From positions 558,001 through 622,000 of the forward strand of contig NZ_CP066796.1 in NCBI RefSeq assembly GCF_017161565.1: a stretch of DNA of 64,000 bases, in the 5' to 3' direction. The first letter of the stretch is position 1, and each line of letters begins with the position of its first letter. A program made the translations under genes and the position numbers. Below are positions 13,729-58,136 of this stretch, piece by piece. This stretch comes from Erwinia amylovora. GTDB taxonomy: Bacteria > Pseudomonadota > Gammaproteobacteria > Enterobacterales > Enterobacteriaceae. Below the pieces are notes generated by a model. It was given only the letters and a program-made list of their open reading frames with translations. It was not told where the DNA came from and made no database searches.

Positions 13729-13890
13729 TTTGAGCTGCGGAGTGAACTGCCGCAACGGCACGGTCGCACGGTCATGGTGGTGCTGCACGATCTGAGCTCC
13801 GCGCTGAACTATGCCGATAAGCTGGTGTTTCTCAAACAGGGGCGACAGGCAGGCATTGTCAGCGAGGCGAAAAACGGGCGTACGAAGTGA
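13729..13890 (+). pseudogene. Relic of siderophore ABC transporter ATPase (FecE/FhuC-like C-terminus)
   Basis: Read in frame, this stretch gives FELRSELPQRHGRT, then VMVVLHDLSSALNYADKLVF and LKQGRQAGIVSEAKNG before TGA. This is the H-loop (LHDL) and following segment of FecE/FhuC-type ATPases. Upstream the frame is closed by several stops, and no Walker A or signature motif was found. It is a non-functional 3' fragment, probably from the transporter that once worked with the intact binding protein at 11.1 kb. Confidence 0.65.
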
Positions 13891-13992
13891 ATGAAAAGCG
13901 TGTTGAACGTTGAGCTACAGACGCCAGTTCACCCGTTGATCGGCGCGCCCTTCTTTATGCCGCTGCGCCGGCGAGACGAGGGGCGGGGGATG
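13891..13992 (+). pseudogene. Relic of FecCD-type permease C-terminus
   Basis: The frame reads VLNVELQTPVHPLIGAPFFM followed by PLRRRDEGRG. FecCD permeases end with a conserved ELPVG-V-T-LIGAPFFL-LL block, and this fragment keeps the spacing and the LIGAPFF core but has lost the rest of the gene. It abuts the ATPase relic. Short, so identification is moderate. Confidence 0.5.
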
Positions 13993-14150
13993 AGTTTTCA
14001 AACCGTTGCGCTATGTCGTCGTCGCGGCACGCTGGTGAGCATTGCTCTCCTCGCGCGGGTGGCGGTGCCCTGAGCCACCTCGCTGACCATATCAGCATAA
14101 TAGGGTAATTCTGAATTTTTCGTTACACCCAATCTATTGTCCCCTCGCGA

Positions 14151-14178
14151 GGAACCACATGGTACTTTCAGCCACTCA
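14151..14178 (+). promoter_or_regulatory. Hrp box (HrpL promoter) before DUF5993-dsbB-PCS-GGT cluster
   Basis: GGAACC-N15-CCACTCA matches every fixed position of the HrpL consensus GGAACC-N15/16-CCACNNA, with the same 15-nt spacer as the boxes before hrpA and hrpJ in this window. It lies 127 nt before the first small gene of the cluster and points toward it. A HrpL-dependent promoter is inferred from the sequence match; no expression evidence is available. Confidence 0.75.
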
Positions 14179-14304
14179 CCGCCATTCCTCTGGTTCAGTG
14201 TGTCAATTGATAAGATTTGGGTGGGGTAACTGGTATTACCCGGCATTCTATCAGGGGAAGATGGCACTGTATCTGGATTACTATTCTCACTAATGGAGTC
14301 ATAC

Positions 14305-14463
14305 ATGTATATGTATTTACCCTTTTTACTAGGCGCAGGCATTGTTTTTAGTATGCTTGCGGGAAAACGAAAGCTGTCTTATCTGTTTTGGTTCGCAGAA
14401 CTGATTATTATCCTCGCGTGGTTGAAAGTTCATGCCACCACTGCGCTTCTCCTTTCGTTCTAG
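14305..14463 (+). CDS. Small inner-membrane protein, DUF5993-like
   Basis: A 52-residue protein starting MYMYLPFLLGAGIVFSMLAG, with two predicted membrane helices (about residues 4-18 and 27-42) and a C-terminal WLKVHATTALLLSF. The ATG at 14305 has GGAG 7 nt upstream; an in-frame ATG at 14293 overlaps the stop of a tiny 10-codon frame (14261-14293). It resembles the DUF5993 family, which I recall as short membrane proteins encoded next to DsbB-like genes. It is 8 nt upstream of the DsbB-like gene and so is probably co-transcribed from the Hrp box at 14151. Function unknown. Confidence 0.65.
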   Translation: MYMYLPFLLGAGIVFSMLAGKRKLSYLFWFAELIIILAWLKVHATTALLLSF

Positions 14464-14471
14464 AGGTCACT

Positions 14472-15023
14472 ATGCAATCGTCTGTTAAAAAAGATTTATC
14501 CCGCCCGCTGAATATGATCATGCTTATTCCGGTTATTGTCGCTTTACTTTGCGCATTTTATTTTCAGCTGAGGTATTACGATCTGCCATGCCCGCTTTGT
14601 CTGCTGCAACGTGCGGCTTTACTGCTGACAGGAGCGGGCCTGCTTTTTAACCTCTATTTTGGCAACAGAAAGCTGCATTATGGCATGGTCATTTTCGGTG
14701 CCTTAGCACTGGCCACCGTCGCCACCCGACATGTTTTCCTGCATATCATGCCCGGTGATACAGGCTATGGATTGCCGTTCCTTGGCATACATTTGTATAC
14801 ATGGAGTTTAATTCTGGCCGTGGCGTTAATCTTTGGCGTGGCAGTGACTTTAATGATCACCCCGGATGCCGCTACACCTTCTGTCGTTAATAAATCTATA
14901 ACGCAGAAAATTCTTATGATTATTTATGCCTTGATTGTGGTGGCCAATCTGTTGTCAACAGTGCTGCAATGTGGCGGCGGTCAGTGTGATGATAACCCAA
15001 CTTATTATCAGTTACTGAAATAG
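14472..15023 (+). CDS. DsbB-like disulfide bond formation protein
   Basis: 183 residues from the ATG at 14472 (AGAGG upstream). There are four or more membrane helices. The redox pair is CPLC at about residue 41 (YYDLPCPLCLLQRAALL), matching the C-x-x-C plus QR motif of DsbB, which binds quinone. A second Cys pair lies near the C-terminus (QCGGGQC). It would reoxidise a periplasmic thiol oxidase by passing electrons to quinone. It is shorter and more divergent than housekeeping DsbB and no DsbA partner is next to it. It is placed between the DUF5993-like gene and the phytochelatin-synthase-like gene. Confidence 0.8.
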   Translation: MQSSVKKDLSRPLNMIMLIPVIVALLCAFYFQLRYYDLPCPLCLLQRAALLLTGAGLLFNLYFGNRKLHYGMVIFGALALATVATRHVFLHIMPGDTGYGLPFLGIHLYTWSLILAVALIFGVAVTLMITPDAATPSVVNKSITQKILMIIYALIVVANLLSTVLQCGGGQCDDNPTYYQLLK

Positions 15024-15106
15024 TTTGTCACGGGTACAACCTGTTGTAAATATCCATCAGGCCGGGAGTTACGGCCTGCTTAATAAGTAATTTGAGAAAA
15101 TTAATA

Positions 15107-15882
15107 ATGAAAAAAATTTTTTTTGCCGCTCTGCTGGCAAGTTTTGTGATGCCCACCAGTGGTTTCAGTCAGATTGTTGACTGGGAAAGTTCCGAGGGAG
15201 TTCAGCGGTTATCGCAGGCCGCCGTTAAGCAGGATTTCTTTGCGCTGGCTCCGCAATTTGAAGGTCAAAGTAATAAAGTCTATTGCGGGGTTGCATCGGC
15301 AACTATCGTACTGAATGCGTTACGCCTGCATGAAAATAAGCCAATTCAACCTGACACCAGCTCTATAGCCACCGAGGACCGTGCCTGGTTCCCGAAAAAG
15401 AACGGCTGGCTTCCGTTCTGGAATCGCTATACCCAGAACAGCGTGGTTGCTTACAGCAGCAAACCGCGTATAGAAATTTTCGGCAAACCAGAGGCTGCCG
15501 GTGCGCAGTCTGATTACGGCCTGCATCTTGAAGATGAACGCCGGCTGCTGACTAATGCCGGACTCAAGGTTAATGCGGTGACTGTCGATGATATCGCGCA
15601 ACAGGATAAGATGAAGAATGAGATCATTGCCGCGCTTAAGCAGCCAGATTCTTTTGTCATCGTGAACTTTTTGCGTAGCGCCATCGGACAAAAGGCGACG
15701 GGCACTTTTCGCCTTTAGGGGCTTATGACGCTAAATCAGATTCATTCCTGATGATGGACGTATCGAACACGCAACATCCCTGGGTGTGGGTCGACAGCCA
15801 AACGCTATTCAAAGGAATGCATACGCTTGATGGCTCACAGTATCGTGGGTATCTGACGGTTGAAGAGTCTGAAAAACTGTAA
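15107..15882 (+). pseudogene. Phytochelatin-synthase-like cysteine peptidase, broken by one base
   Basis: Starts at the ATG at 15107 with a signal peptide (MKKIFFAALLASF...). The catalytic Cys is at about residue 60 (NKVYCGVASATIVLNALRL). In the starting frame the gene stops at 15718, but the +1 frame continues GDGHFSPLGAYDAKSDS, then MMDVSNTQHPWVWVD to a TAA at 15880-15882. That supplies the His (DGHFSP) and Asp (MMDVS) of the PCS triad. Restoring one base in the AAAA run at 15690-15693 gives a 258-residue protein of normal bacterial PCS length. Bacterial members cleave glutathione to gamma-glutamylcysteine. It may be a recent pseudogene or a sequencing error. Confidence 0.8.
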
Positions 15883-15952
15883 AAATATTATTTATCATGA
15901 GGTTATCGCATCATCGCTAACCTCATTGTGCAAAGTAAAGAGATATCATTTC

Positions 15953-17716
15953 ATGTCATGCAAGTTTGTTTTACGTTTTTTACTGGCGTACGGTGCCATT
16001 TCCACCTTTAACGCTCAGGCAGCTTCCGCTCCTGCCGTTGAGGCTCGCCACGGGATGGTTGTTAGCTCACAGGCAATTGCCTCACAGGTTGGGGTAGATA
16101 TTCTCAAGCAAGGCGGCAATGCCATCGATGCAGCCGTTGCCGTCGGCTATGCTCAGGCAGTGGTTAATCCCTGCTGCGGCAACATTGGCGGCGGAGGATT
16201 TATGCTTATCCACCTTGCCGGTGGCAAAGAGACTTTTATCAATTTCCGTGAAACAGCGCCTGCCGCTGCCCGGGCAGATATGTATCTGGATGCTAATAAA
16301 AATGTCCGTTCTGACGCCAGCCTGCATGGCTACTCCGCCGTGGCCGTTCCCGGCACGGTGATGGGGCTGGATTATGCACAGACGCATTACGGCAAGCTAA
16401 GCCGCCAACAGGTCATGGCCCCGGCAATAAAACTGGCGCAGAAGGGTTTTATATTAACGCGTGCGGATAGCGATATTCTCGATACCACCGTCAGCCGCTT
16501 TCGACTGGATGCACAGGCTGCGCGCTGGTTTTTGCGCCCCGATGGCTCGCCGCTCCAGCCCGGCGATCGCCTGAAACAACCTGAACTTGCGGTGACCTTA
16601 AGCCATATTTCTCAGTCAGGTACGGATTATTTCTATCAGTCGCCCATTCCCCAGCGTGTTGAGGCTGCCGCGGCTAAAGGTGGCGGCATTATCACCGCGA
16701 AGGACTTCGCTGATTACCGCGTCACCGAAAGCGCGCCGTTACGCTGTCAGTACAGAGGCTACGAATTTATCTCATCCCCGCCCCCCAGTTCAGGCGGCGT
16801 AGCGCTGTGTGAAATGATCAATATCCTGGCCGGTTATGATATGCGCGCCCTGGGTTTCAATTCTGCCGACTCTGTCCACGTGATGACGGAAGCGATGCGT
16901 ATCGCCTACTTCGACCGCAATAATTCGCTGGGCGATCCGGCATTTATCAACAATCCGCTGGATAAACTGTTGAGCACAAGCTATGCCGATCGGGCGCGGC
17001 GTACTATTCATCAAACGGATGCCACACCGTCTCAGCAGCCTGAAAATAAACAGGTCACAGGCGAACGCCCGGAGACGACCCACTATTCCGTAGTCGATGG
17101 ACAAGGTAATGCGGTTTCGACCACCTACACGGTCAATGGCCGATTCGGTGCCGTGGTCATGGCGCCCGACACCGGTTTTTTCCTCAATGACGAAATGGAC
17201 GACTTCACCACCAAAATCGGTGAAAAAAATATGTTTGGCCTGGTGCAGGGTGCCAGCAATGCCATCGCACCTGGAAAACGTCCGCTGTCTTCAATGTCGC
17301 CTACAATTGTTACGCGTAACAACCGCGTGTTTTTAGTTCTCGGGTCCCCTGGCGGCTCGCGTATTATTACCGCTTCGCTACAGGCTGCGCTGAATATTAT
17401 TGATTACGGCATGCTGCCGCAGGAAGCGGTCGATGCGCCAAGGATCCATCATCAGTGGCTACCGGATGAAGTCTATTATGAACAGGGTGGACTTTCGTTT
17501 GATACCTTGAAACTGCTGCGCCAGCGCGGCTATAAAATGACCGAGCAGACGCCGTGGGGAGCAACTGAACTGATTATGGTTGCCCCCACGCTGAATGTGA
17601 ATGAAAAAGCGGCCGACTCAGGCAATGATTCTGCCGTATCTGGCCAGTTGAGGCCCGGTTATCTGTATGGAGCAAATGACATGCGTCGACCAGCCGGTGC
17701 GGCAGTGGGCTTTTAA
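15953..17716 (+). CDS. ggt: Periplasmic gamma-glutamyltransferase
   Basis: 587 residues from the ATG at 15953, preceded by AAAGAGA; upstream codons to 15860 overlap the previous gene and look non-coding. A signal peptide covers about residues 1-28. The autoprocessing site is at about residue 375 (ETTHYSVVDGQGNAVSTTYT), where Thr becomes the N-terminal nucleophile of the small subunit. Substrate residues are present (FRETAPAAA, SSMSPTIV, GSPGGSRII). The enzyme hydrolyses or transfers the gamma-glutamyl group of glutathione and related compounds. It follows the PCS-like gene by 70 nt and ends with two hairpins, so it is likely the last gene of the Hrp-box operon. Confidence 0.9.
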   Translation: MSCKFVLRFLLAYGAISTFNAQAASAPAVEARHGMVVSSQAIASQVGVDILKQGGNAIDAAVAVGYAQAVVNPCCGNIGGGGFMLIHLAGGKETFINFRETAPAAARADMYLDANKNVRSDASLHGYSAVAVPGTVMGLDYAQTHYGKLSRQQVMAPAIKLAQKGFILTRADSDILDTTVSRFRLDAQAARWFLRPDGSPLQPGDRLKQPELAVTLSHISQSGTDYFYQSPIPQRVEAAAAKGGGIITAKDFADYRVTESAPLRCQYRGYEFISSPPPSSGGVALCEMINILAGYDMRALGFNSADSVHVMTEAMRIAYFDRNNSLGDPAFINNPLDKLLSTSYADRARRTIHQTDATPSQQPENKQVTGERPETTHYSVVDGQGNAVSTTYTVNGRFGAVVMAPDTGFFLNDEMDDFTTKIGEKNMFGLVQGASNAIAPGKRPLSSMSPTIVTRNNRVFLVLGSPGGSRIITASLQAALNIIDYGMLPQEAVDAPRIHHQWLPDEVYYEQGGLSFDTLKLLRQRGYKMTEQTPWGATELIMVAPTLNVNEKAADSGNDSAVSGQLRPGYLYGANDMRRPAGAAVGF

Positions 17717-17736
17717 AACCTGCTTGATCTTGCAAG

Positions 17737-17757
17737 ACGGGCAGTAAGGCTGCCCGT
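17737..17757 (+). terminator. Hairpin downstream of ggt
   Basis: ACGGGCAG-TAAGG-CTGCCCGT, an 8-bp perfect stem 20 nt after the ggt stop. The following TGTTAC is not a full T-run, so termination here may be partial. Confidence 0.5.
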
Positions 17758-17778
17758 TGTTACACAGATCGTTAAGGA

Positions 17779-17812
17779 GCATGAAGTGGTTATCGGCCAC
17801 TTCATGCTTTTT
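17779..17812 (+). terminator. Rho-independent terminator downstream of ggt
   Basis: GCATGAAGTGG and CCACTTCATGC form a perfect 11-bp stem with a 7-nt loop followed by five T. This is the strong terminator of the plus-strand operon. Confidence 0.85.
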
Positions 17813-17900
17813 GCACTATCAATCACCGCAGCGACTACCGCATAAATGTCACCGCATCTGGCGGGGACAATTTAGTCAATTGCACGTTTATCACAACGAA

Positions 17901-38296: not shown

Positions 38297-38743
38297 TCAT
38301 TTAAAGTTGAACTGGTCCGGGTGGTTTTCAAGACTCCCCGTCAAAGCAGCAAAGAGCACCGTCTTGCCATCAATGGACAGGTCGTCATCAATATTCAGCC
38401 AAAGCAGCGTTTGGCTGAATTCTTTCTCATCGCGGGTAGAAAACACGCCGGCCATTTTTTTTGCTTCAGCAGAGTAAAGCACGGCAATATTCTGCGCCGC
38501 GCAGTCATGCGGCTTGCAGGCGTTCAACACCAGGAAATGCTTACCGTCAATATCAACCTGCCGGTTCGGCGAGCTGGTGCCGCCCTCTGTTACCCACCCG
38601 GGCAACGGATGTTTTCCAACCATCTTTTTGAACGCGGCTTTTGTATCGTTATGGGTTGCCAGATCGCTGACCGTAAGGTCGCTTTGTGCGTAAGCGGACA
38701 GCGTTGAGACAGAAAGGAATAGTGCAATAAGTGTCTTTTTCAT
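38297..38743 (-). CDS. ivy: Ivy, periplasmic inhibitor of C-type lysozyme
   Basis: 148 residues from the ATG at 38743, which has AAGGAGC upstream. A signal peptide covers residues 1-19. The mature protein carries the Ivy signature ACKPHDCAAQNIAVLYS with the CKPHDC loop that enters the lysozyme active site, and ends WLNIDDDLSIDGKTVLFAALTGSLENHPD, matching E. coli Ivy. Ivy blocks vertebrate-type lysozymes and restrains lytic transglycosylases. A Hrp-box-like promoter lies 110 nt upstream on the same strand. Confidence 0.95.
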   Translation of the reverse strand: MKKTLIALFLSVSTLSAYAQSDLTVSDLATHNDTKAAFKKMVGKHPLPGWVTEGGTSSPNRQVDIDGKHFLVLNACKPHDCAAQNIAVLYSAEAKKMAGVFSTRDEKEFSQTLLWLNIDDDLSIDGKTVLFAALTGSLENHPDQFNFK

Positions 38744-39101
38744 CACCGAAGCTCCTTGCAGTGGATTGATTGACATCCAGTCTAAGGTAGCAGGTTTTTT
38801 ATGTCGCCGGGCGGCGATCAATGCAACAGCATTTTCTTCGCCTCGGGCATATTGAGTGGTGACAGGCAGAGAAAAGTTCCACAAAGAAAGGCTAATGCCA
38901 TAAATAAAATTAAACCCGATATAAAACGGCGCCTGACGCGAAAAATTGGATGACCTGATGCTGGCGTGGGCACATTTTTTGATTATTTATCGAAGGTTTA
39001 CCCCATCAAATGGGGATATTGCATCGATACCTGTTTCAGGCTAGTTTTAGGATCGCATGGGTTACTGAAGATGCTATTCACTTTACTGGAGCTTATATTT
39101 T
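38744..39101. other. Divergent intergenic region between ivy and virK
   Basis: About 357 bases with the ivy Hrp-box-like site (38853-38880, minus). On the virK side the region is AT-rich with TTTTTTGATTATTTATC, but I recognised no operator and no plus-strand Hrp box. Confidence 0.5.
38853..38880 (-). promoter_or_regulatory. Hrp-box-like promoter upstream of ivy
   Basis: On the minus strand: GGAACT-N15-CCACTCA. It fits the broader HrpL consensus KGGARCY-N15/16-CCACNNA at all fixed positions (T precedes GGAACT) and keeps the 15-nt spacer seen in the other boxes here. It lies 110 nt before the ivy start and points at it. Confidence 0.6.
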
Positions 39102-56141: not shown

Positions 56142-57308
56142 TTACAGCGCCGTCCTGGGTTGTGTCAGGCTGGCGCGCGGTTCCTGCCCGGCGTAATCAC
56201 TGATCACCTTGCGCAGCAGATTCAGCGCCATTTGACGGTTTTTACTTTTATCATCGCGCCATAACCCCAGCGGCAAGTGATAAACCAGCGGGACCAGGCC
56301 ACTGAGGAACAGCACCTGATGGTGCGGATGCTGGCCGGCCACGTCACGCGAGAGGTTTTGCAAATCGCGCAGGTACGCCCCGTTGCCGCTCAGGTTTAGC
56401 AGACGGCGGGTTAGCTCTAACGAGGTGAAATTAATCGTGGGCAGCTTGCCCGCCAGGCGCGTGAGCAGGGTTTTACTGGCGGTCAGCGTCTGGCTGATGT
56501 TACTGGCATCCTGCAGGCTGCTGAGGATTTTTTGCAGCGCACGCCTGGGGATGGAAGAGCTGCGTGACGCAATATCATCCGCCAGCGCACGCTGCAGGGT
56601 GCGTAAACCCTGATTGAAATGCGCACTACCGAAGCTGTTCAACAGGGCGTCAAGCATTGCATTGCCCGATTGCAGGTGAACAATCGTCTGGTAATAAAGC
56701 TGACGCATAACCTGTTTTTGCGTGGGATCGGTACTGAAACTGGCAATGGCGCTGGCGGTATTCAGTCCGGCGCTGACTTCAGCCCCTTTTTCCTTGTGCA
56801 GCAGTTCAAGACTTTGCGCCGCCTTAGTGGCCAGTTCGCTGTTTTGCGTGCGTTGCGCCTGTAACAGCGTATGGCGCAGCAGCACGTCACAGCGCGCCGG
56901 GTCGCCGCCAGCCGCATGCAGTAGCTCATCCATCCCCGGTGATGCGGAATGTTGCAGCAGGGTTTGCATTTTCTGGTTTTGCGTTTCTAAACGCGCATGC
57001 TGCGGATGTTCTAACAGCTTAAGCAATTCGTCTAATTTTTCAATGCGCTCAATATGTTGCTGCGCTCGGCCGCCCGGCTGTGCAACTACCCGCCGCTGAT
57101 TCAGCGCTTTACTTTTACGCTCCACATGTTCGGCAAAGGTCATGGAGACTTCCTCCATTGAGTCCTCCAGCGGTGATACAGGCATGCGCGCCGACGCACT
57201 GGCTGCTGCTGATGGTGCCACGCTGGTTGGGGCAGGGGCTTCATCAGCCGCATTTATCGCGACGGGATGTGGCGGTTGAATGCCGGGTAAAACGGGAGCA
57301 ATTTTCAT
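56142..57308 (-). CDS. hrpJ: HrpJ, YopN/InvE-like gatekeeper
   Basis: 388 residues, first gene of the minus-strand hrpJ operon. The N-terminal 60 residues are Ala/Pro-rich, as for a secreted protein. The HrpJ/InvE domain follows (RKSKALNQRRVV, EKLDELLKLLEHPQHARLETQNQKMQTLLQ, MDELLHAAGGDPARCDVLLRHTLLQAQ). Gatekeepers set the order of translocator and effector export. A Hrp box precedes it at 57344-57371. Confidence 0.92.
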   Translation of the reverse strand: MKIAPVLPGIQPPHPVAINAADEAPAPTSVAPSAAASASARMPVSPLEDSMEEVSMTFAEHVERKSKALNQRRVVAQPGGRAQQHIERIEKLDELLKLLEHPQHARLETQNQKMQTLLQHSASPGMDELLHAAGGDPARCDVLLRHTLLQAQRTQNSELATKAAQSLELLHKEKGAEVSAGLNTASAIASFSTDPTQKQVMRQLYYQTIVHLQSGNAMLDALLNSFGSAHFNQGLRTLQRALADDIASRSSSIPRRALQKILSSLQDASNISQTLTASKTLLTRLAGKLPTINFTSLELTRRLLNLSGNGAYLRDLQNLSRDVAGQHPHHQVLFLSGLVPLVYHLPLGLWRDDKSKNRQMALNLLRKVISDYAGQEPRASLTQPRTAL

Positions 57309-57587: not shown

Positions 57588-58136
57588 ATGACAGAAATTC
57601 ACCTGCAAACAACTGAATCAACATCGGTCAACGATGGGCTACCGCTTAATATTGATTGGGAAGGCATATTCCGTGAGCATGGGCGACGCGTGCATCATTT
57701 TATTCGCAAGCGCGTATCCCATCGCGAGGATGCCGAAGATCTGGAGCAAATGACCTGGCTGGAGGTTTTGCGCAACCGTGACAAATTCGCTGGCGCGTCA
57801 CGGCCAGAAACCTGGGTGTTTGGCATTGCCTTAAATTTAGTGCGCAACCATTTTCGCCTGCAGTCCGGACGACCGCGTTGTGATGAACTGGAAGACGATA
57901 TCATCCTGACTCAGGGCGACGATCCCAGCCATATCACCGAATATCAGCGTCTGCTTAATTCGACGCTTAATTCCATTGCCAACTTGCCGGAAGATACGCG
58001 CCGTCTGTTGAACATGCTGGTCGAGAAAGACGGCAGTTATCAGGCTATTGCAGCACATTTGAATATCCCGATTGGCACCGTGCGTTCACGTCTGTCGCGT
58101 GCGCGCGTCACGCTGAAACAGTCAGTATTTTCTTAA
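57588..58136 (+). CDS. hrpL: HrpL, ECF sigma factor of the Hrp regulon
   Basis: 182 residues. Region 2 reads IFREHGRRVHHFIRKRVSHREDAEDLEQMTWLEVLRNRDKF, and region 4 NLPEDTRRLLNMLVEKDGSYQAIAAHLNIPIGTVRSRLSRARVTLKQ. HrpL recognises Hrp boxes. Expression is expected from the sigma-54 promoter upstream. Confidence 0.97.
   Translation: MTEIHLQTTESTSVNDGLPLNIDWEGIFREHGRRVHHFIRKRVSHREDAEDLEQMTWLEVLRNRDKFAGASRPETWVFGIALNLVRNHFRLQSGRPRCDELEDDIILTQGDDPSHITEYQRLLNSTLNSIANLPEDTRRLLNMLVEKDGSYQAIAAHLNIPIGTVRSRLSRARVTLKQSVFS

What the first reader, a model, noticed from the sequence alone, without database searches (positions are those of the whole stretch)
14151..17716. Candidate HrpL-controlled glutathione-processing operon outside the hrp cluster
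A Hrp box matching all fixed positions (GGAACC-N15-CCACTCA) with the same 15-nt spacer as the hrpA and hrpJ boxes precedes four co-directional genes: a DUF5993-like membrane protein, a DsbB-like protein, a phytochelatin-synthase-like peptidase with a signal peptide, and a periplasmic gamma-glutamyltransferase, closed by strong hairpins. PCS-like enzymes and GGT both act on glutathione, and DsbB on thiols. If HrpL turns this on, the bacterium would process glutathione or cysteine-containing peptides in the periplasm or plant apoplast at the moment the type III system is deployed. I do not know of a described system of this make-up.
Basis: partly seen in the sequence, partly recalled or inferred. 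Interest (0 to 1): 0.88.

Follow-up and report, generated by a model that had tools for sequence, protein, structure and literature searches.

The report
HrpL-box operon of thiol-handling genes
Near the infection machinery of a fire-blight bacterium lies a four-gene set for handling sulfur-containing peptides; it carries the machinery's own type of on-switch, related plant pathogens mostly keep that switch, and one of the four genes is broken in this genome.

Summary
The Hrp box (14151-14178) and four co-directional genes are real. GGAACY-N15-CCACTYA sits upstream of the same gene set in 6 of 7 lineages found to carry it (this genome, E. pyrifoliae, E. psidii, two unnamed Erwinia, Pantoea stewartii-type plasmids); E. 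tracheiphila lacks the -35 half. All 7 encode a close HrpL-type sigma factor. The complete set was found in 6 of 37 Erwinia genomes and on two of three P. stewartii-type plasmids (GGT split in the third), nowhere else I looked. HrpL control and a virulence role of the first gene are very probably already in print (EAM_2938; I saw only passages of a citing paper). DUF5993-DsbB is a widespread pair (15 of 15 other gammaproteobacterial DUF5993 loci), laid out like Campylobacter Dba-DsbI. Most likely: a HrpL-driven periplasmic thiol module, which in intact relatives can cut glutathione-type peptides at both bonds, and here is reduced to membrane thiol oxidase plus GGT. One-message transcription, substrate and function are untested.

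The parts
14151..14178 (+). Hrp box (HrpL-type promoter) GGAACC-N15-CCACTCA
   Evidence: position kept in relatives
14293..14463 (+). DUF5993 small membrane protein (56 aa from the first ATG, 52 aa from 14305; the 159-nt form fits EAM_2938)
   Evidence: PF19455; only match in the genome; EAM_2938 length
14472..15023 (+). DsbB-family membrane thiol oxidoreductase, variant with CPLC and a C-terminal Cys pair, 183 aa
   Evidence: five-helix model
15107..15718 (+). PCS-like gene, first part: signal-peptide-like start and catalytic Cys, then premature stop
   Evidence: PF05023 profile 9-160
15751..15882 (+). PCS-like gene, last part, in another reading frame (matched from 15688)
   Evidence: PF05023 profile 175-210
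15953..17716 (+). gamma-glutamyltransferase, second type in this genome, 587 aa, signal-peptide-like start, processing Thr375
17736..17758 (+). hairpin after the GGT
17778..17813 (+). strong 14-pair hairpin followed by T run: probable terminator
   Evidence: z -7.3; not listed by the consensus scan

Best explanation
A HrpL-transcribed accessory operon of the type III secretion regulon. Shown by comparison: box, gene order and close spacing are kept across Erwinia and Pantoea stewartii-type bacteria that encode HrpL. Inferred: HrpL starts one message about 120 nt before DUF5993; DUF5993 acts as a Dba-like helper of the DsbB-like protein, and the two form an inner-membrane thiol oxidase with both Cys pairs facing the periplasm; PCS-like enzyme and GGT are exported and, in relatives where both are intact, cut glutathione or related gamma-glutamyl thiols at the Cys-Gly and gamma-Glu-Cys bonds, while the oxidase re-oxidises the freed thiols or exported proteins. 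In this genome the PCS-like step is lost, leaving oxidase plus GGT.
For: Box at -131 to -144 before the first ATG in 5 of 6 Erwinia with the set (exact GGAACC in 4, GGAACT in E. psidii) and at -142 in two Pantoea plasmids, -324 in DC283 behind an insertion, while spacer letters diverge and synonymous sites between the two Erwinia groups are near saturation (dS 1.09-1.44 for this genome against G010). Strict pattern 36 versus 3 controls. Set in 6 of the 8 Erwinia with close HrpL and in 0 of the other 29. Same gaps in 7 lineages: 8 nt DUF5993-DsbB, 74-83 nt DsbB-PCS. dN/dS 0.03-0.13 for all four genes in the three most distant pairs compared. DUF5993 followed by DsbB in 15 of 15 other loci. PCS relatives match Nostoc Alr0975 with aligned Cys, His, Asp; GGT complete. 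EAM_2938 reported up-regulated by hrpL and up in planta (passages).
Against: No transcript data of my own; the link of this gene to EAM_2938 rests on length, place and uniqueness. Consensus scans show only chance-level sites, and two weak sigma-70-like sites lie before PCS and GGT, so internal starts are not excluded. The box is lost in E. tracheiphila, PCS is broken here, and GGT is split in P. stewartii DC283: parts are dispensable in some lineages. Two Erwinia with close HrpL, and 14 with a 47-58% identical sigma factor, lack the set. The DUF5993 gene is induced by copper in strain EaR2 while hrpA falls (passages), so other control exists. In the closest pair DUF5993 has dN/dS 0.49 (7 against 4 changes). 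No substrate evidence.
Confidence: 0.55

Rival explanations
1. The DUF5993-DsbB pair is the functional core: a second disulfide-forming system switched on by HrpL to oxidise secretion-system parts or other exported proteins. PCS-like enzyme and GGT are passengers with a nutritional role.
For: The pair occurs alone elsewhere; PCS is broken here and GGT split in DC283 while DUF5993 and DsbB are intact in all carriers seen; the reported virulence gene EAM_2938 is the DUF5993 gene if my mapping holds.
Against: PCS and GGT are under strong constraint in the distant pairs and stay in order in every carrier; the operon GGT is one clade travelling with the set.
Confidence: 0.25
2. A metal or envelope-stress module: PCS-like enzyme makes or trims metal-binding thiol peptides, GGT and the oxidase manage periplasmic thiols; HrpL is one of several inputs.
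For: PCS family name and biology (recalled); DUF5993 gene up log2 3.35 and 4.83 in EaR2 grown with copper, together with spy and rprA (PMC12542790 passages).
Against: No change in strain Ea273 (-0.64, 0.23); no metal transporter or regulator in the four genes; box conserved and carriers all have HrpL. The column order of that table I inferred from spy values.
Confidence: 0.12
3. The box is a chance match and the operon is run from another promoter.
For: Loose pattern 7 hits against 4 controls in this genome.
Against: Position-conserved in 6 of 7 lineages; strict pattern 36 against 3; a rough neutral estimate gives 3e-5 to 2e-6 for keeping 12 fixed letters in one distant pair; EAM_2938 report.
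Confidence: 0.04

Closest known systems
EAM_2938, HrpL-dependent gene of E. amylovora (McNally et al. 2012; not seen, known to me through passages of PMC5683332)
   Same: 159 nt, putative membrane protein, place in the genome within about 3 kb of this one; very probably the DUF5993 gene itself
   Different: The passages name one gene only, not an operon with DsbB, PCS and GGT; coordinates are printed in descending order and I could not read that genome
Dba-DsbI of Campylobacter jejuni (PMC3167755, passages)
   Same: Small inner-membrane protein gene 11 nt before a DsbB-family gene (8 nt here); helper needed for the oxidase there
   Different: DsbI is 498 positions long in its model with an extra domain; here 183 aa, 42 bits against a cut-off of 800; different regulator; DUF5993 was not compared with Dba by sequence
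Nostoc Alr0975, a bacterial phytochelatin-synthase-like enzyme (PDB 2btw, 2bu3, 6th5, 6tho, 6tjl)
   Same: Whole catalytic domain with aligned Cys, His and Asp in the intact Erwinia and Pantoea proteins; Alr0975 cleaves glutathione (recalled)
   Different: The gene in this window has lost the frame before His and Asp; operon partners differ
E. coli GGT (PDB 2e0w, 2dbu)
   Same: Aligned over 519 residues, small chain starting at Thr375
   Different: Second GGT type, 47% identical to this genome's own canonical GGT, own clade
HrpL-regulated non-effector genes of Pseudomonas syringae (PMC3879358, search listing only)
   Same: Genes other than injected effectors under HrpL
   Different: Gene content not compared

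Membership tests
HrpL-regulated operon | Hrp box upstream of the first gene | tested here: met
   14151-14178
HrpL-regulated operon | Box conserved with the gene set | tested here: met
   6 of 7 lineages; -35 half lost in E. tracheiphila
HrpL-regulated operon | HrpL encoded in the same genome | tested here: met
   7 of 7 lineages, 75.7-100% identical; named HrpL by recall and place beside the hrpJ-type gene, one search gives only ECF sigma factor
HrpL-regulated operon | HrpL-dependent transcript covering all four genes | not testable with these tools
   Published for the first gene if it is EAM_2938 (passages)
DUF5993-DsbB pair (Dba-DsbI-like) | DUF5993 over cut-off directly before a DsbB-family gene | tested here: met
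   15 of 15 other loci
DUF5993-DsbB pair (Dba-DsbI-like) | NCBIfam Campylobacter DsbI model over cut-off | tested here: not met
   42.4 bits against 800
DUF5993-DsbB pair (Dba-DsbI-like) | DUF5993 homologous to Dba | not tested
   No Dba sequence was fetched
DsbB family | CxxC in first periplasmic loop plus a second Cys pair | tested here: met
   CPLC and CGxxxC in 26 of 26 and all 49; second pair at the C-terminus, unlike E. coli DsbB (recalled)
Phytochelatin-synthase-like enzymes | Pfam PF05023 over cut-off | tested here: met
   75 bits against 24.9 for the first part; last part 22.3, below cut-off alone
Phytochelatin-synthase-like enzymes | Cys-His-Asp in one reading frame in this genome | tested here: not met
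   met in relatives' proteins
Gamma-glutamyltransferase | Family model over cut-off and processing Thr | tested here: met
   TIGR00066 542.5 bits against 357.85; Thr375 at small-chain start
Glutathione-processing pathway | Activity on glutathione | not testable with these tools
   none

The most novel reading that the evidence does not exclude
HrpL-bearing Erwinia and P. stewartii deploy, together with their type III system, a two-cut periplasmic line that dismantles glutathione (PCS-like enzyme at Cys-Gly, GGT at gamma-Glu-Cys), wired to a variant membrane thiol oxidase that passes electrons from the freed thiols to the respiratory chain, so depleting the host's apoplastic or xylem thiol pool; this E. 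amylovora genome has since lost the PCS step.
Probability: 0.3. Interest if true: 0.72.

Novelty: new variant of a known kind. Interest (0 to 1): 0.52.

Why it matters
If right, it ties the sigma factor of a plant pathogen's secretion system to thiol and glutathione chemistry outside the cytoplasm, gives a little-understood HrpL-dependent gene (EAM_2938) its partners and a testable role, and shows a gene set that is shared, with its promoter, by Hrp-type pathogens of two genera, on a plasmid in one. It also warns that the model species may be a poor place to look for the PCS step.

Tried and rejected
Chance box: rejected on conservation, not on the single-genome count. Intact PCS in this genome: rejected on the reading frame. 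Is the break shared by E. amylovora? Not settled: the protein search (11 proteins) clusters at 90%, so E. amylovora and E. pyrifoliae cannot be told apart; P0004, an unnamed protein on a 1186-base contig, ends like the broken frame here but has other frame slips, so it is weak support. GGT neighbours elsewhere: 0 of 80 GGT loci kept from genome contigs (the best 80 of 590 or more relatives) had a tblastn match to DUF5993, DsbB or the PCS parts in the fetched DNA. PCS loci in a class sample: 16 of 369 genomes match (15 over cut-off); no DsbB or GGT match beside any locus but the window's own (flanks about 1.5 kb, some shorter). PCS in an evenly drawn Erwiniaceae sample: 1 of 295, this genome only (it held few Erwinia and evidently no carrier Pantoea). 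PCS on Arsenophonus plasmids (53%): two of seven records looked at, no DsbB, DUF5993 or GGT annotated beside it. E. coli DsbB structures match the DsbB-like protein only weakly (E 0.24). A fold comparison of the DsbB-like model was not obtained. The McNally 2012 paper is not held; two reviews citing it gave passages without EAM_ numbers or glutathione, and only shows that its promoters were used for a profile.
Full report
WHAT IS THERE. The box GGAACC-N15-CCACTCA lies at 14151-14178. It precedes DUF5993 (first ATG 14293, second 14305, stop 14463), a DsbB-family gene (14472-15023), a phytochelatin-synthase-like gene starting at 15107, and a gamma-glutamyltransferase (15953-17716); Pfam. Two hairpins follow, the second with a T run (z -7.3; the consensus scan did not list it). 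The HrpL-type sigma factor gene is at 57588-58136 and the hrpJ-type gatekeeper gene at 56142-57308 (one search names an ECF sigma factor and SctW/TyeA; 'HrpL' and 'HrpJ' are recalled names that fit), so the set lies about 40 kb from hrpL. The genome has 3.84 Mb in 2 contigs. It is very probably Erwinia amylovora: its DsbB-like protein is 97% identical to a cluster named after E. amylovora Ea644.

The PCS-like gene is broken. Its first frame ends at 15718; the end of the domain lies in another frame. The distance between the two matched parts is one base off a whole number of codons; in five other Erwinia it is a whole number and the gene is one open frame. The residues aligned with Nostoc Alr0975 as His200 and Asp218 of the E. 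pyrifoliae protein (catalytic roles recalled) lie beyond the break. The stretch before the break has dN/dS 0.11 to E. pyrifoliae and 0.25 to G015, so the loss may be recent. Whether all E. amylovora strains share it, or whether it is an assembly error, I could not test.

THE PROMOTER. One box in a genome is weak evidence: the loose pattern has 7 hits against 4 for its reversed control. The weight comes from comparison. Among 37 Erwinia genomes, 6 carry the set: close GGT in 6 (87-100%; more distant GGTs in all 37), DUF5993 in those 6 plus a lone 48% relative in G005, PCS in the same 6, DsbB beside them in all 6 (DsbB was not sought in the other genomes). Three Pantoea stewartii-type plasmids carry it too, complete in two; in DC283 the GGT is in two pieces. 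The box is GGAACC in this genome, G018, G015 and G010 and GGAACT in E. psidii and the plasmids. It starts 131-144 nt before the first ATG, except in DC283, where an insertion puts it at -324. In E. tracheiphila the CCACTTA half is left and the -35 half is not (the relaxed pattern finds no box in its 16-kb stretch). Spacer letters differ freely. The strict pattern has 36 hits against 3 controls in eight genomes. All carriers encode close HrpL (84-100% in Erwinia; 75.7% on the same plasmid in Pantoea). Two Erwinia with close HrpL, G031 and G032, lack the set, as do 14 with a 47-58% identical sigma factor. Six of 8 against 0 of 29 has a hypergeometric chance of 1.2e-5, but the genomes are related, so this is not a true probability. 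In G032 the beta-glucosidase gene that flanks the set here is present, the set is not, and other DNA lies beside it. In the plasmid collection, HrpL at 76-80% also occurs on Pantoea vagans, P. agglomerans and one further P. stewartii record that did not come up for PCS.

ALREADY IN PRINT. PMC5683332 (passages) says that EAM_2938, a putative membrane protein gene at 569,413...569,255 of CFBP 1430, was found by McNally et al. to be up-regulated by hrpL, is up in planta, and is known to contribute to virulence. That is 159 nt. The ORF 14305-14463 is 159 nt, lies at 572,305-572,463 of this genome, and is its only DUF5993 match. The coordinates are printed in descending order and I could not read that genome, so identity is very likely, not proven. 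I did not see the McNally paper. Full-text searches for PCS with GGT and HrpL and for PCS with Erwinia and hrp found 0 papers; a broader one listed 2, not opened, whose titles are on other subjects. The library lacks most subscription journals, so this is not proof that the operon is undescribed.

THE MEMBRANE PAIR. DUF5993 occurs in 16 of 369 sampled gammaproteobacterial genomes; at all 15 loci other than the window's a DsbB-family ORF follows at once. Three Serratia and Pantoea plasmid loci opened, of nine such records without the set, show the pair without PCS or GGT. The DsbB-like proteins share CPLC and a CGxxxC pair at the C-terminus in 26 of 26 sequences, and the four Cys are invariant in the 49. 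The model (mean pLDDT 80, pTM 0.77; the C-terminal tail is at pLDDT 41-69) has five helices, with CPLC before helix 2 and the second pair after helix 5, which by the usual DsbB topology puts both on the periplasmic side. The layout resembles C. jejuni Dba-DsbI, where Dba is needed for DsbI (PMC3167755, passages), but the DsbI model's cut-off is not met and Dba was not compared.

THE ENZYMES. The intact PCS-like protein matches Alr0975 structures from residue 23 to 255 (E 3.4e-32). The GGT is complete, with the small chain starting at Thr375. The eight operon GGTs form one clade (support 100), apart from the 14 canonical Erwinia GGTs included; the Pantoea copies sit beside G010 (quick tree), which suggests transfer. 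None of 80 GGT relatives from other genera had the partners in the fetched DNA.

HOW IT PROBABLY WORKS. Shown: gene content, conserved box, HrpL presence, broken PCS. Inferred: HrpL transcription of the set as one message (short, constant gaps; weak sigma-70-like sites before PCS and GGT at chance level); export of PCS-like enzyme and GGT (from the look of their starts, no predictor run); cleavage of gamma-glutamyl thiols; re-oxidation by the membrane pair. Here only the pair and GGT remain, so a virulence effect of EAM_2938, if it is this gene, is not due to PCS. Against a simple story: the DUF5993 gene rises in strain EaR2 grown with copper (log2 3.35 and 4.83) but not in Ea273 (-0.64, 0.23), while hrpA falls in both at the lower dose (PMC12542790, passages; strain order of that table inferred from spy values), so there is another input.

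VERDICT. Real and largely well read; the first gene's HrpL control is very probably known; the operon, its conservation with HrpL, and the broken PCS were not found in the papers I could search. New variant of a known kind.

Noticed in passing
window 38853-38880 (-) and 38297-38743 (-): A GGAACT-N15-CCACTCA Hrp-like box 110 nt upstream of an Ivy-family lysozyme inhibitor gene (PF08816, E 1.4e-27). No equivalent was evident in the E. pyrifoliae hit list.
   Followed up: partly
window 13730-13995: Stretch upstream of the operon with about 79% DNA match in G032 and G015 but no long ORF here; looks like decayed coding sequence.
   Followed up: no
L120 (P. stewartii DC283 pDSJ10): An insertion with inverted-repeat ends lies between Hrp box and DUF5993, and the GGT is in two pieces, whereas two other P. 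stewartii-type plasmids are intact there.
   Followed up: partly
window 14185-14310: The presumed leader holds an inverted repeat around GGGTAA...TTACCC, folding no better than shuffles (z -0.78), and short ATG-stop stretches overlapping the DUF5993 start (TAATG) in several relatives.
   Followed up: no
G000:C1:730459-730486 (-), locus L195: A strict Hrp-box match with no obvious long gene just downstream in the fetched 3 kb.
   Followed up: partly
L123, L124 (Arsenophonus nasoniae plasmids): A 53% PCS relative sits next to the plasmid replication gene, on 7 records.
   Followed up: partly
L112 (G005:C1:1243928-1244089): A lone DUF5993 relative (48%) in an Erwinia without the PCS gene.
   Followed up: no
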